A stretch of DNA of 64,000 nt from an uncultured Pseudomonadota bacterium (GTDB taxonomy: Bacteria > Pseudomonadota > Gammaproteobacteria > Methylococcales > Methylomonadaceae). Position numbers and translations under genes: made by a program. The stretch covers positions 1 through 64,000 of the forward strand of contig CAIYSZ010000114.1 of the NCBI GenBank assembly GCA_903928965.1. Direction: 5' to 3'. How positions within the stretch are numbered: the stretch's first letter is position 1; each line of letters opens with the position of its first letter. Below, in pieces: positions 9,356 through 30,128 of this stretch. The notes below the pieces were generated by a model. That model did not search any database. It saw only the letters and a list, made by a program, of their open reading frames with translations, and was not told where the DNA came from.

Positions 9356-10924
9356 ATGTCAAAAAAACAAGCGGTGGCCGCGCCTCTGGCCCGGCCGAAA
9401 GCAGCCGGCGTGAGTAAGTGGTTGTTATTATTTACCGTCAGCATTACCGGCGGCGTGGTAATGATTTTAGAATTGTTGGGCACCCGGATTATCGCGCCGT
9501 ATTACGGCGCTAGTTTATATGTATGGTCGGCGCTGATATCGGTGACTATGTTCGCCTTGGCGCTGGGCTATTATGCCGGAGGTTGGTTGAGCGATCGGTT
9601 TCCGCGTCTGCGTTTGCCGCATATTTTGTTGGCGGCGGCGTTAAGCGCCGTATTGATTCCATTTTTCAGCGGCCCGGTGATGGAGTTCTGCAATCCGGCC
9701 GGCCTGCGTCTGGGCGCTTTTGCCAGCGCCTTTATTTTATTTACCCCGGCCTTGACCGCGCTGGCCATGGTCGGGCCATTTACGATTAAACTGGCTACCG
9801 AGGATTTGCAAGGAGTCGGCACGGTGGCGGGTTCTGTTTACGCCATCAGTACCTTGGGCAGTGTGTTGGCGACCTTGTTATTAAGTTTTTATTTGCTGCC
9901 GGCCTTTGGCGCGCGCGCCATTATTTTTAGCGCCAGTTTGATTTTATTGGCCCTGGCCGGTTTTTTGATGTTTCGGGATAATCAAGGCTTTGTAAAGCCC
10001 GCCAGCATTTTGCCGATGTTGCTAACCGGGGCTTTGATCGGCGCATTGGCGATCAACGGCTTTGCCTTGGCCCGGCCGCAAGCGGCCGAATTTAAGGTTA
10101 TTCATGCCGAGGAAAGCAATTACGGCTGGGTGCGGGTGGTGGATAATCAAAAGTATGGCGCGCGCTTGCTGTTGTCGGACGCGTCGGTTTTGAGCGCTCA
10201 GGCCTTGAATAATGGCAGGACCTTGCTGAATTATCAAAACGTCATCGCACAATTGCCGCTGTTCCGGCCCGACGCCAAGCAGGCGTTGTTGATCGGCTTG
10301 GGCGGCGGGCATATTGCTTTAGGTTTTAACGCCGCCGGTTTGACCACCGATACCATAGAAATAGATCCGGCTATCGCGCAAGCGGCGCTGGACTATTTCA
10401 ATTTTAAGCCGAACGGCGAGTTTTTGGTCGGCGATGCCCGCTACGAAATCAAGAAATTGCATAAGCAATACGATTTTATCATCCACGATTGTTTTACCGG
10501 CGGCACCGAGCCGACGCATTTATTGACCGTGGAGATGTTGACGCAGTTGCGCGGCATGTTGAGCGAGCAAGGGGTGTTGGCCTTGAATTACGTAGGGTTT
10601 ACCCAGGGCGAGGGTACGCAGGCGGTGGCCTCGGTGTATAGAACCTTGCGCCATGTTATGCCGGAAGTGCGGGTGTTTATTACCGATAAGGCGGAGTTCA
10701 CCGATTTTATTTTTCTGGCTTCGCGGCAACCAATCAACTTGGACCCTAGGCAGCCGGACCCGCGCGTAAATTGGTTGTTGGATCATGAATATCACCTGGA
10801 CGAAACGCAAGGCATTTTGATCACCGACAATTACAATCCCTTGGAGTCCATGCAGGTTCGCAAGTCCGAGCATTACCGGCAGGTGTTTATGCAGCGAATT
10901 AGTCCGGAATTGTTGATTTTGTAG
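9356..10924 (+). CDS. Membrane-anchored spermidine-synthase-like protein
   Basis: About 522 residues. The first about 230 residues hold roughly seven membrane helices with the GxxALELxGxR-type start typical of fused MFS/spermine-synthase proteins. The C-terminal part is a Rossmann methyltransferase fold with GLGGGH in the nucleotide-binding loop, an acidic EID at the end of strand two and a GDAR motif, as in the SpeE superfamily. The proton-acceptor segment reads DCFTGG rather than the standard aminopropyltransferase motif, so the substrate is uncertain. The start is set at the ATG at 9356; an in-frame TTG at 9338 is less likely. Its 3' end overlaps the convergent 10899 gene by 26 bases. Polyamine or small-molecule alkyl transfer at the membrane is inference. 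Confidence 0.8.
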   Translation: MSKKQAVAAPLARPKAAGVSKWLLLFTVSITGGVVMILELLGTRIIAPYYGASLYVWSALISVTMFALALGYYAGGWLSDRFPRLRLPHILLAAALSAVLIPFFSGPVMEFCNPAGLRLGAFASAFILFTPALTALAMVGPFTIKLATEDLQGVGTVAGSVYAISTLGSVLATLLLSFYLLPAFGARAIIFSASLILLALAGFLMFRDNQGFVKPASILPMLLTGALIGALAINGFALARPQAAEFKVIHAEESNYGWVRVVDNQKYGARLLLSDASVLSAQALNNGRTLLNYQNVIAQLPLFRPDAKQALLIGLGGGHIALGFNAAGLTTDTIEIDPAIAQAALDYFNFKPNGEFLVGDARYEIKKLHKQYDFIIHDCFTGGTEPTHLLTVEMLTQLRGMLSEQGVLALNYVGFTQGEGTQAVASVYRTLRHVMPEVRVFITDKAEFTDFIFLASRQPINLDPRQPDPRVNWLLDHEYHLDETQGILITDNYNPLESMQVRKSEHYRQVFMQRISPELLIL

Positions 10925-13745
10925 GGCTGTTCGCAATAAAACCGCTCAGCCAAGCGCTCAATTCGGGCGCGCCGGTTATCAGCGCCAATTGTTCGGCTTG
11001 TAAATCGCCATTTAACGCGTGCAATACGCAGAACAAGCGGAGCACGGTTTGGTTGGCGGCCATGGCCGGGTTGGCGCGCACGCCTTGCGCTAATGCGGCT
11101 AGGGCGACCGGGTAGTCGCGCTGGACGACCGCGGCCGCGATCGATTCATTGATATATTCGGGGCTTGCGTTGGGCGGAATCCGCGTCAATAGCTTTTGGC
11201 TGTCCGGCGTCGCGCCCAGTATTAACAAGGGAGTGACTTTAAGCGGCGGGACGGATTGCAGTTCGGTCGCCAATTCGCGCCAAAAAAACAGGTCCGGGTC
11301 GGTTACCGGCCGGTAATATTCCGCATGCTTGACGTTGAGCATGGTGATGATGTGCTCGGCGTTGAAATAGGCGGCTGCCGCGGCGATGTGTTCCGCGTCT
11401 AGCCAGGCTCGGCTTTCCTCGCTGTTGGCCAAGTTTCGCCGGCGCGCGTCCAAGTCCAATAAATCCGCGTATAACGGAAAAACGCCGCGGAAATTTTGGT
11501 AATCCGGCGACAAGCGGTGCGGAAAATCGTCGGTCAGGGGAGCGGTGTTTTGGGTCAATCGTTTTAATTCCGCGCTGCCGGCGACATAGGTCGCGGCGAT
11601 TTGCCCCGGCTGTTCAAAACCGAGGTCGCGCAGGCGCTCACCCAGCGGCGAGCGCCACAGACGCTCCCAACGCGCGGGGTCCATGGGTGACGGCGCTTGT
11701 TTACCGCCGAGCAAAATAAATTCCAGGCCGCCGCCGTTCCACAAACTGCAGTGCGTGAACACGTTGCAGAAGGCTTTGATGATGGCCAGGCTGTCGTCGG
11801 CGGTCAACTCGTGCGCCGGCAGCCAATAACTGGTCATGCCGTTCGGCTTCAGGCGGTCGAAAATCAGTTGAAAATATTCTTGGGTATACAAGTTGACCAC
11901 GCCGGCGGTTTTCGGCGGCGGCGGTTCGCCGGTGATTAAATCGTACCGGGCGGTCTCGGTTTGCAAAAAGAAGCGGCCGTCCTCGATATGCACCCGGGTT
12001 CTAGGGTCTTGCAGCGGATGCACGCCGCGCGCCTGATGCACGATTTGGCTCAGGTCGAGAATGTCGCGCGAGATATCCACCACGTCGTAACGGCGCAAGC
12101 TGTCCAGACTGACCACCGCCTCGGCGGTCATGCCGACGCCATAGGAAATTTGCAGCACGTCTTGCAAGTCGTCCCGTAATAGGTGCGGCAGGTAAACGAA
12201 CAGTTTCATGTAGCGTTGCGCCGGAAAGCTGGTGCCGGACATGCTAAGGCTATTGGTGGCCAAGCGATACCATAGCGGCTGTCCCATTTTTTCGACGGCG
12301 AAATATTGAATGGTTTCGTTTAGTCCTTCCTTGACCGCCAGCGGTTTTTCGCCGGGATACAGTTGTTGCCCGTAAGCCGCGTAGATTTTAGGCAAGGCGG
12401 AATAAGGGAATAAGCCGAGCGTGGCTATCAAAGCGGCGCAGCCTGCCGCGCGCGGCCAGGCGGAAGCGGATGGGGCGGTGAGGCGCGGTAAGGCGGCGAG
12501 CAGATAAACGCAGGCCAAGGCCAGCAATGAGTATTCGACGCCGAGATGGGGCAAGAGTATAAACGTCGCGGCGGCGGAGCCCAGCGCCGCGCCCAGGGTA
12601 TTGACCAGCGTCAGCCAGCCGGCGCTGGCGGCGCTTGCCAAGCGCTGGCGCAAATCCTGTCCGAACAAGGGAAACAGAATGCCGGATAGGCAGGCGGTCG
12701 GAGTCATCAGCAGCGCGGAACAGTAAATCAGGGCGCGCGGATTGAAACTTAAGGATTTGAAATCCTGTTCATACAACCAGGCCAGCAGCCTGAAACTGAC
12801 AGCCACGCAGCAAGCCGCCGCCAGACAAAAATAGGCGATGCGGGCGTCCAGGCCGCCGGCGGCCGGTTTTAGCCGCGAGGCGATGAATCCGCCCAGGGCC
12901 AGACCGGCCAGGATCAGGCTGAGCATGACCGCGAAAACGCTGGAGCTGCCGGATTGGCTTAACAGCAGCAAGCGGAACCATACCACTTCCAAGGCCAGCA
13001 GGGTAAATCCGGTCAGGAATGGCCCGGCCAGCAGGCCGAGCGGAGGCATGCCTCGTGGGCTAGGCGTTTCCGCGGCGGGCAGGATATGCGGTTGGCGGAG
13101 GAAGCCGACATAAATCAAGCCGGCGGCCAGCCAGTTGAGGCCGGCGGAGAATACCGCGGCGCCGTTAATTCCAAAATAGGTGATAAAAACATATTCCGCG
13201 GCCAAGGCGCCGGCGACCGCGCCGAGGGTATTCCAGCCGTAAAGGCGGCCCATGGCGCGCAGAAAGTCCGGGTCATGCCGGGTCACGGCTTGCTGTAGCA
13301 AGGGCAGGGTCAAGCCCATGCCGAAGGCCGGCGGCAGGAAGGCGCAAAACGCCAGGCTGAAGCGCAGGCCGGCCAATAGCGGCGGCGAGCCGGCCGCCGC
13401 GCCTAGCAAGGGGCCGAGCGCCGGCGAGAGATAAGGCGGCAAATAAACCGCCAGCAAACCGCCGCCGCCGATCAATAGTTCGCAATACAGATACCAGCGG
13501 AATGGGCGGCTCAGCTTGTTTTCATGGCGGATGATCCAGGCCGCGCCCAAGGCCAGGCCGGACATGAAGGCGGTCAATACCGCGGCGGCGCTGTACACCG
13601 AAGAGCCCAGCATGCGGCCGGCGACGCGGAACCATAAGGTCTCGAACATCAGCGCGGAAAAACCGGATAGAAAATACGCCAGCATGGCTAGCGGCAGCTG
13701 GCGCGGCTTGAAGCCGGCGCCGGCGGAGGGATTGGATTCTTCCAT
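10899..13745 (-). CDS. Large fused MFS/spermidine-synthase-like membrane protein
   Basis: About 948 residues from the ATG at 13745; the reading frame stays open to 13970, but the family-like sequence begins here. Two homologous membrane blocks (about residues 15-220 and 240-430, each starting with an F-x-x-ALxxExxWFR signature) give around 14 helices. They are followed by a spermidine-synthase-like Rossmann domain (GVGMTAEA loop, VVDIS, GEPPPP segment) and a helical C-terminal extension of about 200 residues. Proteins of this fused type are widespread and mostly uncharacterised. It faces the related but shorter 9356 gene tail to tail, and the two coding regions overlap by 26 bases. Whether it makes a polyamine or acts on another membrane substrate cannot be told from sequence. 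Confidence 0.85.
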   Translation of the reverse strand: MEESNPSAGAGFKPRQLPLAMLAYFLSGFSALMFETLWFRVAGRMLGSSVYSAAAVLTAFMSGLALGAAWIIRHENKLSRPFRWYLYCELLIGGGGLLAVYLPPYLSPALGPLLGAAAGSPPLLAGLRFSLAFCAFLPPAFGMGLTLPLLQQAVTRHDPDFLRAMGRLYGWNTLGAVAGALAAEYVFITYFGINGAAVFSAGLNWLAAGLIYVGFLRQPHILPAAETPSPRGMPPLGLLAGPFLTGFTLLALEVVWFRLLLLSQSGSSSVFAVMLSLILAGLALGGFIASRLKPAAGGLDARIAYFCLAAACCVAVSFRLLAWLYEQDFKSLSFNPRALIYCSALLMTPTACLSGILFPLFGQDLRQRLASAASAGWLTLVNTLGAALGSAAATFILLPHLGVEYSLLALACVYLLAALPRLTAPSASAWPRAAGCAALIATLGLFPYSALPKIYAAYGQQLYPGEKPLAVKEGLNETIQYFAVEKMGQPLWYRLATNSLSMSGTSFPAQRYMKLFVYLPHLLRDDLQDVLQISYGVGMTAEAVVSLDSLRRYDVVDISRDILDLSQIVHQARGVHPLQDPRTRVHIEDGRFFLQTETARYDLITGEPPPPKTAGVVNLYTQEYFQLIFDRLKPNGMTSYWLPAHELTADDSLAIIKAFCNVFTHCSLWNGGGLEFILLGGKQAPSPMDPARWERLWRSPLGERLRDLGFEQPGQIAATYVAGSAELKRLTQNTAPLTDDFPHRLSPDYQNFRGVFPLYADLLDLDARRRNLANSEESRAWLDAEHIAAAAAYFNAEHIITMLNVKHAEYYRPVTDPDLFFWRELATELQSVPPLKVTPLLILGATPDSQKLLTRIPPNASPEYINESIAAAVVQRDYPVALAALAQGVRANPAMAANQTVLRLFCVLHALNGDLQAEQLALITGAPELSAWLSGFIANSPTKSTIPD

Positions 13746-14144
13746 GAGGTTGGTGCAAAAAAGTTGAGTTACGCTCGAATCGCGTATTTTAACCTTGATC
13801 GCACAATATTGAAGAACTTTTGCGGATGATCCCGCGGCGCGGTCGAGAATGGACCGAAGCGGCCGTGACGGGGAGTGCGGGATATCCCCTATTGTGTATG
13901 CAATTAGGGGAATTAACCTATTTTTCCAAAAGTCTTTGGTTTGGCCGGAGCCGGTATTTTGGGTGCTCACGGTTTTAAATTAAATTAAATCAATTACCTA
14001 GGTGTTGAATAATAATTTTGGCCCGTTGTTTGCTTTTATAATGCCATGAATAGACGGCGCTGACCGGTTACACGGCGGCGCGGGATGCCAGTCAGGCAGT
14101 TTCAACATATTGTCATGTTGACTTGCTAAGCTAGCGTTAATTTT
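13746..14144. other. Gene-free upstream region of the candidate Csr-type RNA
   Basis: About 400 bases between the spermidine-synthase-like gene and the GGA-rich RNA region. It holds a TATAAT box at 14037-14042 with only a weak -35, a 7-base inverted repeat TCAACAT-N6-ATGTTGA, and a TTGACT hexamer at 14118-14123 overlapping the right arm. Either could promote the RNA; the second lies closer to the onset of GGA motifs. Confidence 0.4.
14102..14121. promoter_or_regulatory. Inverted repeat TCAACAT-N6-ATGTTGA, candidate activator site
   Basis: Perfect 7-base arms with a 6-base spacer just upstream of the GGA-rich RNA. Csr RNAs are usually activated by GacA/UvrY through an inverted repeat with 6-base arms and a 6-base spacer (TGTAAG-N6-CTTACA). 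The layout matches, the letters do not, so assignment to a GacA-type regulator is inference. A TTGACT hexamer overlaps its right arm. Confidence 0.4.
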
Positions 14145-14179
14145 TAAGGAAGTTGGAACCGGTGCGGATGGTTTCGCAC

Positions 14180-14202
14180 GCTCGCGTTAAATTAACGCGA
14201 GC
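14180..14202. repeat. Perfect 11-base palindrome
   Basis: Arms GCTCGCGTTAA and its exact complement flank a single A. It lies near the 5' side of the candidate Csr RNA. In RNA it would fold to a stable stem lacking GGA; in DNA it could be a protein-binding site. It follows directly after a GTGCG hairpin (14162-14179) with a GGA at the stem-loop junction. Confidence 0.6.
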
Positions 14203-14890
14203 AAGCCGGGTTCGCGAATTGAAGGGATAGGGAGAGAACATGAGGTTCTATGCGCCACGGAAGGAAGTGGGATCGGCGGCGCGGGATGGAAGCCCGCAAT
14301 AGGGATAGGGATAGCGAGCGGGATGCTTTAGGGAGGCGGCAGGGACGCCCCAGGCTGGAAGCCTGTCAAAGGGATGCCGGCGGCATTGACGCCGCTTTAG
14401 GATAAGGATGTAAGTGGGACGCGGGCCGGCATGGGTAATGCCGCTTAGGGAATGAGGGACGCGGCGGGGAAAGCCGTGGTCAAGGATGAAAGATGGACGC
14501 CATGCGGGCTGGAAGCCCTGAAGCATGGCCGTTGCGCAGGCGGCGGTCATGACGGAATTTAAACTAGGAAATGGCCAAGGAATCAGGCGCGGGCAAGGAT
14601 GCGCCGGGCAAGGAAGTCCGGTTTAGTGAGCCGTTCGGACGCAACAGGCCGGGCGGGAGCCAGGGAGGGAAGTGGGATCGCTGGCGGAAAGGAAACCCAA
14701 GGCCATGCACGCTGGTTGTACGGCGGCATTTAAGGCGTTAAGGAATGGGACGATAAGCGGATTATTGAGAAGCCAGGGATGGGCGTTGGACGGTTTTAGG
14801 GGCTGGAAGCCCAATTAGAATCAAACCATGACGAGGATGGACAGAATAAACGGATTATCATGCGCTAGGGATGGTTGAGGGAGCGATGTT

Positions 14891-14912
14891 GGGCTGGATG
14901 CCCTTTCTTTTT
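14891..14912 (+). terminator. Terminator of the Csr-type RNA, loop also carries GGA
   Basis: GGGC, loop TGGAT, GCCC, then TTTCTTTTT. A short GC stem directly followed by a T-rich tract, with the same loop type as the upstream hairpins, closes the RNA 30 bases before the convergent modC stop. Csr RNAs commonly end in such a terminator. Confidence 0.75.
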
Positions 14913-14942
14913 AGCTTGGTCAGGTTGTTTTGATTGTTAGAG

Positions 14943-16037
14943 TCAGGCTTGGCAAGCTATTGCGGTCGCCTTGATCAAGGCAAATACTCGCATGCCTGCC
15001 TTCAATTCCAGTGTCCGCGCCGACTTACGGCTGATTTGCGCAATCAATAGTGACATCCCTGATCCAGGCTCGCCTATGCGCAGGCGCGCCAAGGCGTGTC
15101 CGTCATTTTGCTCGGTCAAGCTCGTCACCGTCGCCGGCAGGCAGTTGAGTATGCTGGTTTTATCCAAGGCTTGTAAACTCAGGCTAACATCCCGCGCCAG
15201 CAATTGCAGCCTAATCTTGGTTCCCGGCGCGGCTTGCGGCAGGGGTAGTTCCAGAACGCCGCCGGAAAAAGCGACTTCACTGATAGAGTGTTCCGGACTA
15301 TGCCTAATCACGTTGGCAGGCCAAATGCAGCCGATTTCTCCGGATTCGGTGAGCGGCAGCGGATGTTGATTGAGAACGGTTTGTAATTCGCCGTGAATGT
15401 GCACCCCGCCTTGCGCCAGCACCACCAAATAATCGGCCAATTGCGCCAATTCGTGTCCGGAATGAGTAACGTAAAGCAACGGAATTTTCAGGCCGCGGTG
15501 TAATTGCTGTAAATAGGGCAAAATTTCGCGCTTGCGCGCTTGGTCCAAGGCCGCCAATGGCTCGTCAAGCAATAGTATTTCCGGATTCAGCGCCAAGGCC
15601 CTGGCGATGGCTACGCGTTGCCGCTCTCCGCCGCTTAGATGCCGCGGCATGCGCGGCAGCAGATTTTCCAGGCCCAGCAGCCCGCATATTTCGTCCGGAT
15701 GCCGTCTTGAAGCGGATTTAGGCAGGCGTTTGAGTCCGAATTGTAAATTTTCCGCGACATTCAAATGCGGAAACAGATTGGCCTCTTGAAATACGTAGCC
15801 TAAGGCCCGGCGGTGAGTAGGGACGAACAGTTTCCGGCCGCTGTCTTGCCACACTTGACCGTTGACTTGCAAAAAACCGGGTTCCGCCTGATGCAAACCC
15901 GCGATGCAGCGTAACAACGTGGATTTGCCGGAGCCGGACGGGCCGAATAACACGGTGACGCCGGCTCCCGGTAATTCGAGGTCCGCATGCAGCCGGAAGT
16001 CCGGATAATCGACGCGAAAACGGGCGATAACACTCAT
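14943..16037 (-). CDS. modC: Molybdate ABC transporter ATP-binding protein
   Basis: A 364-residue ABC ATPase of the ModC type that would power molybdate import. Walker A GPSGSGKS is at residues 32-39, the LSGGE signature at 134-138 and Walker B LLLDEP at 155-160. The C-terminal 70 or so residues look like a TOBE domain, which binds the oxyanion in ModC. The start overlaps the modB stop by four bases (ATGA), so the two are translationally coupled. ModA, the periplasmic binding protein, is not found beside them. A related oxyanion such as tungstate is possible. Confidence 0.88.
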   Translation of the reverse strand: MSVIARFRVDYPDFRLHADLELPGAGVTVLFGPSGSGKSTLLRCIAGLHQAEPGFLQVNGQVWQDSGRKLFVPTHRRALGYVFQEANLFPHLNVAENLQFGLKRLPKSASRRHPDEICGLLGLENLLPRMPRHLSGGERQRVAIARALALNPEILLLDEPLAALDQARKREILPYLQQLHRGLKIPLLYVTHSGHELAQLADYLVVLAQGGVHIHGELQTVLNQHPLPLTESGEIGCIWPANVIRHSPEHSISEVAFSGGVLELPLPQAAPGTKIRLQLLARDVSLSLQALDKTSILNCLPATVTSLTEQNDGHALARLRIGEPGSGMSLLIAQISRKSARTLELKAGMRVFALIKATAIACQA

Positions 16038-29213: not shown

Positions 29214-30128
29214 TTAGCTTAGGTCTTGATTGCAAAATTCTTCCGGACTCTGGCTGTCTTTCCCTGCGTCAGCGGGTATGTCGGCTTCGTCGATTATGAA
29301 TTCCGATACTCCAATATGATTTTCACGCTCCGGGTCCCAATTATAGGTCCAGCCCATGCCGGTAAAAGGAAAGCCGTATGCATCGCTTTGCTGCTCCGGC
29401 GCTCCGGCCCTGCTGAAGCCGTCCCGCCATGAAGTCAACATTTGCTCGTTCAAAAAACGCAACCTTTTATAGTCCTCAATTAATTTTTCCACTTCCTCCT
29501 CCGAATAGGATTTACCTTCCGCCGGTTTAGGCAAGACCGGCGGCTCGGGCAAGTTAAACGTGCAAAACTTATCCTGCAAATTACTACCGCTAAAACAGGG
29601 CCGACGAACTTTATCAAGCTTGAGCCGTAGCTTAAACAGCTTAAAATCCCGCTTGTCCTCCGGTAGGCCTAGGATTTGTTGTATGGTTTTCAGTGAATTT
29701 GTTTTGTCCCGGCATTGTTTTTTTAACTCACTAGGTATGGTCAACCAAATGTAATTGGCGACGGCAGGTTTTGTTGTCGGCGTTGAGTCCTTGTTTTGCT
29801 GGGCGTTGGCGGCATTAGTCTTGTCGCAGTTATCTGTTAAAGCGGGATCGGGATGCCAACAATTATGCTTAAGGGTAACGAAAGTTTCCTCTTTCGTGGT
29901 ATCGGGGAAAGTGGACAACTCGACTTTTAGATGCGGAGGTTTCCTAACCGCGGCGTCCAAAATAGCCGCTTGATAGGGAGTGACGGCTTGTTGAGTATCG
30001 GAGACAAAAACAAGCAAGACGATTAGAACGAAGCAACCGGTTGGAATTAGCAGATACCAATCCAGGGTTTGCCACCAATCGCCCAAAATTCGGGGCAACC
30101 GTTTTATAATGCTAGGCCACTGTATCAT
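29214..30128 (-). CDS. Membrane-anchored protein of unknown function
   Basis: A 304-residue protein with one helix near the N-terminus (about residues 27-44) and a large, polar, mostly extracytoplasmic domain containing six Cys residues after the anchor, with a Pro/Lys/Glu-rich segment around residues 195-225. I do not recognise a family. The start overlaps the stop of the 30125 gene by four bases, so the two are one unit with the CBS-type gene first. The Cys content suggests disulphides in the periplasm; otherwise no function can be assigned. Confidence 0.7.
   Translation of the reverse strand: MIQWPSIIKRLPRILGDWWQTLDWYLLIPTGCFVLIVLLVFVSDTQQAVTPYQAAILDAAVRKPPHLKVELSTFPDTTKEETFVTLKHNCWHPDPALTDNCDKTNAANAQQNKDSTPTTKPAVANYIWLTIPSELKKQCRDKTNSLKTIQQILGLPEDKRDFKLFKLRLKLDKVRRPCFSGSNLQDKFCTFNLPEPPVLPKPAEGKSYSEEEVEKLIEDYKRLRFLNEQMLTSWRDGFSRAGAPEQQSDAYGFPFTGMGWTYNWDPERENHIGVSEFIIDEADIPADAGKDSQSPEEFCNQDLS

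What the first reader, a model, noticed from the sequence alone, without database searches (positions are those of the whole stretch)
14145..14912. Giant CsrB/RsmZ-type RNA with about 50 GGA motifs, many in hairpin loops
By eye the plus strand has about 50 GGA triplets in about 765 bases and only one TCC, a bias near 50 to 1. At least seven hairpins expose GGA in the loop, four sharing a GGC-TGGA[AT]-GCC form, and the last is an intrinsic terminator. Known Csr sponges are smaller (E. coli CsrB about 370 bases, about 20 motifs). Size, motif number and the repeated loop sequence would make it an unusually large CsrA sink, located among polysaccharide and surface genes that are typical Csr targets. 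Family assignment is inference; the motif count and folds are seen directly.
Basis: partly seen in the sequence, partly recalled or inferred. Interest (0 to 1): 0.85.

Follow-up and report, generated by a model that had tools for sequence, protein, structure and literature searches.

The report
Oversized CsrA-sponge RNA gene
A stretch of non-coding DNA in an uncultured, probably methane- or methanol-using bacterium looks like the gene for an unusually long RNA that soaks up the global regulator CsrA, with about twice as many CsrA-type motifs as E. coli CsrB; transcription and binding are untested.

Summary
In detail: 50 GGA and one TCC on the + strand of 14145-14912 (dinucleotide shuffles mean 30, sd 3.7, maximum 43 of 2000). 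Sixteen simple GGA-loop hairpins lie in 14045-14912 against 3.9 in dinucleotide shuffles. GGA triplets are predicted more unpaired than in GGA-preserving shuffles, as in E. coli csrB run as control. Contexts fit the published CsrA site: 17 ARGGAW against 2.6 in shuffles. The stretch is intergenic, converges on modC, has no convincing ORF and ends in a short terminator-like hairpin with GGA in its loop. The genome encodes a CsrA 51 of 58 residues identical to PDB 1y00 and a GacA/UvrY-like regulator. Best reading: a free-standing CsrB-like CsrA sponge of about 770-870 nt. It works like CsrB but matches no Rfam Csr family at the gathering score. No homologue was found in 60 relatives, so there is no between-species covariation. 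A sigma-54-like element lies at 14018-14034. Transcription and CsrA binding are untested.

The parts
14018..14034 (+). sigma-54-like -24/-12 element TTGGCCCGTTGTTTGCT
   Evidence: One mismatch to YTGGCACGN4TTGCW (consensus recalled); the only site with at most 1 mismatch in the window. Shuffles of 13746-14148: 0.0005 per shuffle; but whole-window shuffles give 0.2 per strand, so the weight comes from its position.
14037..14042 (+). TATAAT, a perfect -10 hexamer overlapping the sigma-54-like element
   Evidence: Read; no matching -35, and the promoter scan found no sigma-70-type site in 13770-15000.
14046..14912 (+). predicted non-coding RNA; 5' end inferred from the promoter-like elements
   Evidence: 51 GGA; 36 of 51 with predicted unpaired probability over 0.5.
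14148..14898 (+). GGA array (50 GGA, 1 TCC)
14281..14297 (+). hairpin GCGGG-atggaag-CCCGC
14351..14365 (+). hairpin CAGGC-tggaa-GCCTG
14460..14478 (+). hairpin CGCGGC-ggggaaa-GCCGTG
14506..14518 (+). hairpin GGGC-tggaa-GCCC
14586..14605 (+). hairpin GGCGCG-ggcaagga-TGCGCC
14604..14621 (+). hairpin CCGGGC-aaggaa-GTCCGG (six-base loop close to the published ANGGAN)
   Evidence: loop rule from PMC7652899. Overlaps the preceding hairpin by two bases, so both cannot be complete at once.
14800..14812 (+). hairpin GGGC-tggaa-GCCC
14891..14912 (+). terminator-like hairpin GGGC-tggat-GCCC plus TTTCTTTTT
   Evidence: not listed by the tool's scan
14943..16037 (-). convergent ABC transporter ATPase with TOBE domain (read as ModC); its stop lies 31 nt beyond the RNA end
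10899..13745 (-). divergent spermine-synthase-domain protein (start uncertain; the frame is open back to 13970)

Best explanation
14046-14912 (+) is the gene of a free-standing non-coding RNA that sequesters CsrA. Shown by sequence: about 50 GGA sites in CsrA-like context, many in hairpin loops or single strands of an otherwise well-paired RNA; no convincing ORF; a promoter-like element and a terminator-like end; a canonical CsrA gene and a GacA/UvrY-like regulator in the same genome. Inferred: it is transcribed as one unit of about 770-870 nt; CsrA dimers bridge pairs of sites (at most about 25 dimers if every site were used); when the RNA accumulates, free CsrA falls and CsrA-repressed mRNAs are released, as with CsrB. 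The sigma-54-like element would make the sink depend on an enhancer-binding activator that I could not identify.
For: GGA number against shuffles; ARGGAW 17 against 2.55, sd 1.57, maximum 8 of 1000; GGA-loop hairpins 16 against 3.9; GGA unpaired 0.615 against 0.462 (sd 0.028, maximum 0.528 of 100 GGA-kept shuffles) while GGC in the same RNA is 0.08; E. coli csrB as positive control 0.726 against 0.493; longest stop-free + frame 189 nt; convergent neighbour 31 nt beyond the end; CsrA gene, 51 of 58 residues identical to PDB 1y00 (counted from the alignment); GacA/UvrY-like regulator, 40% to E. coli UvrY.
Against: No Rfam Csr match at gathering score. No homologue in 60 relatives and none beside modC in 29 of 36 genus mates, so no between-species covariation. 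No GacA-box match (best 4 of 12 positions wrong; box recalled). The GGA-kept hairpin margin is modest. Terminator stem only 4 bp. No transcription or binding data. The genus also has GGA-dense mRNA leaders, so GGA density alone does not prove a trans-acting sponge. The best UvrY match is one of four at 34-40%, and the flanks I saw lack the uvrC that follows E. coli uvrY.
Confidence: 0.8

Rival explanations
1. It is the GGA-rich 5' leader or 3' UTR of an mRNA that CsrA controls in cis, or a leader that has lost its gene, not a trans-acting sponge.
For: In the genus, GGA-dense leaders exist upstream of secreted-protein genes, most of those seen with a c-di-GMP-I riboswitch (10 of 10; 4 of 13), and one lies in the own genome without a riboswitch match (L124). 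The region around the sigma-54-like element is 85% identical over 34 nt to that of a signal-peptide protein gene in G006.
Against: No + strand gene follows: the next gene converges 31 nt beyond the end, and the + strand ORFs within 13984-14912 reach 56 aa at most. The upstream neighbour diverges, so it is not its 3' UTR either.
Confidence: 0.08
2. It is a structured non-coding RNA with another function, in which GGA is a recurring structural element rather than a CsrA site.
For: Large size; stable fold (z -2.6 with 20 shuffles); a GGA-free perfect hairpin at 14179-14203 (-16.1 kcal/mol); no known family.
Against: No match to any of 4227 Rfam families at gathering score. GGA context and exposure are those expected of CsrA sites, and the genome has a canonical CsrA.
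Confidence: 0.07
3. It is non-functional sequence: decayed repeats or skewed intergenic DNA.
For: Fifteen short, weak internal repeat families; no relatives found.
Against: Composition and dinucleotides do not explain motif number, context or exposure.
Confidence: 0.04

Closest known systems
E. coli CsrB (and CsrC)
   Same: Many GGA motifs in hairpin loops and single strands, similar density (6.0 against 6.5 GGA per 100 nt), similar exposure of GGA, intergenic, terminator-like end, CsrA in the genome.
   Different: About 2.1-2.3 times as long with 50 instead of 22 GGA; loops often TGGAA/TGGAT where csrB has mostly AGGAN; no Rfam match; sigma-54-like element; no GacA-box match.
Pseudoalteromonas Pf1, Pf2, Pf3 Csr RNAs
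   Same: Recognised by multiple GGA motifs, promoter and terminator, with little sequence conservation (PMC11882849, passages).
   Different: 25, 21 and 9 GGA there; 50 here.
RsmY / RsmZ of pseudomonads
   Same: Same proposed mechanism of protein titration.
   Different: The Rfam models are only 121-133 positions long; RsmY matches here are far below gathering, and RF00166 did not match this RNA at E up to 1.

Membership tests
CsrB/RsmZ/RsmY (Rfam RF00018, RF00166, RF00195) | Covariance-model match at the gathering score | tested here: not met
   No match in the window; RsmY 11.9 and 11.7 bits, gathering 57; RF00166 in the own genome matched elsewhere only.
CsrB-type CsrA-sequestering RNAs (functional class) | Many GGA motifs beyond chance | tested here: met
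   50 against 30.1, sd 3.7
CsrB-type CsrA-sequestering RNAs (functional class) | GGA in CsrA-like context, in loops or single strands | tested here: met
   consensus from PMC7652899 (passages)
CsrB-type CsrA-sequestering RNAs (functional class) | Non-coding intergenic gene with its own promoter and terminator | tested here: inconclusive
   Intergenic and without convincing ORF; sigma-54-like element; no sigma-70 site and no terminator listed by the scan, 4-bp terminator-like hairpin by hand.
CsrB-type CsrA-sequestering RNAs (functional class) | CsrA/RsmA encoded in the genome | tested here: met
CsrB-type CsrA-sequestering RNAs (functional class) | Activation by GacA/UvrY through an upstream box | tested here: not met
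   A GacA/UvrY-like protein exists, but the best match to TGTAAGN6CTTACA (recalled) in 13761-14200 has 4 of 12 positions wrong.
CsrB-type CsrA-sequestering RNAs (functional class) | Transcribed, and binds several CsrA dimers | not testable with these tools
   needs RNA-seq and binding assays
CsrB-type CsrA-sequestering RNAs (functional class) | Conserved GGA hairpins in related species | tested here: inconclusive
   No homologue found; GGA clusters in relatives are mostly mRNA leaders and do not align convincingly.
PrsR/PEP-CTERM sigma-54 regulon | -24/-12 element with a motif ending TTTACA 32-92 nt upstream, and PrsR (TIGR02915) | tested here: not met
   Element present but no TTTACA in 13905-14017 (by eye); TIGR02915 best 353.5 bits, cut-off 502.6. 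Motif from PMC1569441 (passages).

The most novel reading that the evidence does not exclude
A single RNA with about 50 CsrA sites, twice the largest number I saw reported (25), fired by an enhancer-dependent sigma-54 promoter: a lineage-specific, switch-like CsrA sink that does in one molecule what other bacteria do with several smaller Csr RNAs.
Probability: 0.35. Interest if true: 0.7.

Novelty: new variant of a known kind. Interest (0 to 1): 0.55.

Why it matters
Csr RNAs change too fast for ordinary sequence search, and Rfam misses this one. If real, it about doubles the number of motifs seen in the CsrA sponges I read about, would tie CsrA titration to sigma-54 control, and gives a handle on global regulation in a methylotroph-like lineage. 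It also offers a natural test of how titration capacity scales with site number. I found no paper on a Csr RNA in this group in these searches, of which I saw listings only: Methylomonas + CsrA, 4 papers; methanotroph / CsrB / Methylococc / small regulatory RNA at two of four terms, 1,222 papers, 12 listed.

Tried and rejected
Rfam at gathering and E-value thresholds: no Csr family at gathering score. BLASTN of the RNA in 60 relatives, 36 genus mates at E up to 10, plasmids and phages: no relative, only short scraps. RF00166 in 61 genomes: 16 with a match at E up to 1, none over the cut-off, the control ringing in 5 of 14 genomes; none of the 22 loci fetched was GGA-dense, and the four I printed were terminator-like by eye. 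Synteny through the spermine-synthase-domain neighbour: full length only in the own genome; the genome-contig scan found no relative. Synteny through modC: loci came back for 29 of 36 genus mates, none with a GGA cluster within about 1.5 kb (some flanks shorter at contig ends).

GGA-cluster patterns in the genus: one search covered 37 genomes but listed rows for 12, with a tighter pattern, covered the own genome and the other 24, listing all but one row. These first looked like homologues of the RNA. They proved to be mostly leaders above c-di-GMP-I riboswitches and an element downstream of what reads as pstS. The densest other cluster, L122 of G021 (20 GGA in 200 nt), does not align beyond chance (score 31, shuffles 30.1), and its GGA are no more exposed than in shuffles (0.558 against 0.544). 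L123 aligned at 51 against a shuffle maximum of 50, and csrB itself at 47 against 49; I take these as shared GGA spacing, not homology. A PrsR-type control of the promoter was tested and not met. The loose sigma-54 pattern TTGGCN7TTGCW with 1 mismatch gives 33 sites in the window (16 expected) and is not informative.

Full report
Observation. The stretch 14145-14912 has 50 GGA and one TCC on the + strand. Its own dinucleotide shuffles give 30.1 (sd 3.7, maximum 43 of 2000), so composition and neighbour frequencies do not explain the number. E. coli csrB, fetched as yardstick, has 22 GGA and 2 TCC in 369 nt: 6.0 per 100 nt against 6.5 here. Of the 139 loci held at the end, the five that contain this stretch score 203 on a GGA-minus-TCC segment score; next come two loci of G021 (125, 123) and csrB (84).

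Motif context. An A stands two bases before GGA in 29 of 50. ARGGAW occurs 17 times against 2.55 (sd 1.57, maximum 8 of 1000) in shuffles. The published CsrA SELEX consensus is RUACARGGAUGU, and high-affinity sites have an ANGGAN loop (PMC7652899, passages seen). The fit is good but not uniform: several loops are TGGAA or TGGAT. The median spacing of neighbouring GGA is 12 nt; 18 nt is given as the optimum for one dimer bridging two sites (PMC3856055, passages).

Structure. Sixteen simple hairpins carry GGA in the loop, against 3.9 (sd 1.9) in dinucleotide shuffles and 8.9 (sd 2.9) when every GGA is kept; the second margin is modest. Some of the sixteen overlap and cannot all form at once. The stronger test is exposure: GGA triplets have a mean unpaired probability of 0.615, against 0.462 (sd 0.028, maximum 0.528) in 100 GGA-kept shuffles, while GGC in the same RNA is 0.08; 36 of 51 GGA are above 0.5. 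A repeat with 60 shuffles gave 0.457 (sd 0.024). E. coli csrB behaves alike (0.726 against 0.493, sd 0.044), the G021 leader L123 too (0.736 against 0.572, sd 0.042), and the G021 cluster L122 does not (0.558 against 0.544, sd 0.046). Two internal copies 405 nt apart (28 nt, 86%) show one stem pair changed on both sides and another lost (read by hand), which is only a hint of internal covariation.

Gene anatomy. The neighbour at 10899-13745 (-; spermine synthase domain) diverges, and the ABC ATPase at 14943-16037 (-; read as ModC) converges. The + strand ORFs within 13984-14912 reach 56 aa at most, the longest stop-free + stretch is 189 nt, and four small ORFs, two from each strand, have no Pfam match. 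A short terminator-like hairpin with GGA in its loop ends at 14912; the tool's scan, which demands 5 pairs, did not list it. The only internal run of four or more T after the array begins is TTTT at 14794, with no hairpin noticed before it. Upstream, TTGGCCCGTTGTTTGCT (14018-14034) has one mismatch to the recalled sigma-54 consensus. Shuffles of 13746-14148 give 0.0005 such sites, but whole-window shuffles give about 0.2 per strand, so the weight comes from its position. A 34-nt stretch around it is 85% identical to the region upstream of a signal-peptide protein gene in G006 (E 0.005 in a search of 37 genomes). TATAAT overlaps at 14037-14042, but the promoter scan lists no sigma-70 site. The inferred start is near 14046.

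Genome context. The genome (G000, 3.25 Mb, 116 contigs, 91.9% complete) gave one CsrA match; over residues 1-58 it is 51 of 58 identical to PDB 1y00 (E. coli CsrA, recalled). A GacA/UvrY-like regulator is 40% identical to E. coli UvrY, with KTVNTYRYRMYGKLQIKNDVELARLA near its C-terminus; three other LuxR-type regulators score 34-37%. E. coli uvrY is followed by uvrC, which I did not see in the flanks here. One LuxR-type regulator (L118) lies beside a gene that looks like a PQQ methanol dehydrogenase (by eye). A neighbour gene of G021 has its relative in an uncultured Methylococcaceae bacterium. I therefore take the organism to be a methylotroph of the Methylococcales; no tool named its genus.

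Search for relatives. BLASTN found the RNA in 1 of 61 genomes, its own. At E up to 10 the 36 genus mates gave only short scraps. The modC flanks of 29 of 36 genus mates hold no GGA cluster (highest GGA-minus-TCC 9 per 200 nt, here 17). GGA-cluster patterns (rows listed for 12 of 37 genomes, tighter, for the own genome and the other 24) are specific to AGGGA-type clusters, so absence of other Csr RNAs is not shown. They do show that the genus has other GGA-dense transcripts: leaders above c-di-GMP-I riboswitches (10 of 10 loci L100-L109; 4 of 13 further loci), one GGA-dense leader without a riboswitch match in the own genome (L124), and GGA elements downstream of what reads as pstS.

Mechanism. 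I read the stretch as a trans-acting CsrA sponge. Shown: sites, context, predicted exposure, anatomy, partner protein. Inferred: transcription, binding, titration and sigma-54 control. One CsrB binds about 18 CsrA subunits (PMC7652899, passages); simple scaling by motif number would give about 40 here, which is arithmetic, not data.

Comparison. It works like CsrB. It is not a member of an Rfam Csr family: that test was made and not met. The Csr RNAs for which I saw GGA numbers have 25 (Pf1), 22 (CsrB), 21 (Pf2), 14 (CsrC) and 9 (Pf3) (PMC11882849, passages); rsmB of soft-rot bacteria, about 479 nt, is recalled. That none is larger rests on the listings and on those passages, so it is a limited claim. 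That a sigma-54 promoter is unusual for this class is likewise recalled; one search (listing only, 34 papers at three of five terms) was not read further. Hence 'new variant of a known kind'.

Noticed in passing
L100-L109, L131, L132, L133, L138 (genus mates); L123, L124 without riboswitch match: A GGA-dense leader of about 60-310 nt lies just upstream of a c-di-GMP-I riboswitch (10 of 10 loci, 4 of 13) before a secreted-protein gene. By eye there are PhoB-box-like repeats further upstream (recalled consensus). Joint control by CsrA and c-di-GMP is a guess.
   Followed up: partly
L125, L126, L128, L129 (also L110-L113; matches only for L127, L130): Downstream of what reads as pstS lies a short GGA element, AGGGA then a hairpin GC-ARGGAT-GC then AAGGA, followed by a terminator-like hairpin; a possible CsrA site in the phosphate-uptake operon.
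   Followed up: partly
L122 (reverse strand, 2181-2440 in that orientation) and L139 5640-5759: G021 has 20 GGA and no TCC in 200 nt between a secreted-protein gene and a haemagglutinin-like gene; the corresponding gap in an uncultured Methylococcaceae contig has 7 GGA and no TCC in 120 nt. GGA exposure in L122 is not above shuffles.
   Followed up: partly
L069 and L083 (G006, G028): A signal-peptide protein gene (PEP-CTERM-like by guess) with a -24/-12 element; in L069 a TTTACA about 75 nt upstream fits the published PEP-CTERM regulatory site.
   Followed up: partly
14130-14143 and 14189-14202; 14180-14202: The segment 14189-14202 can pair with 14130-14143 (93%) or within its own perfect hairpin 14180-14202: two exclusive folds near the 5' end, possibly a switch.
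   Followed up: no
13885-13911 and 14102-14121: Two dyads, TCCCCTATT-N9-ATTAGGGGA and TCAACAT-N6-ATGTTGA, could be regulator sites for the RNA or for the divergent gene.
   Followed up: no
29302-29503 (-): Second-best GGA segment of the window, on the minus strand inside ORF 29214-30128.
   Followed up: no
L118: A LuxR-type response regulator lies beside a gene that looks like a PQQ methanol dehydrogenase.
   Followed up: no
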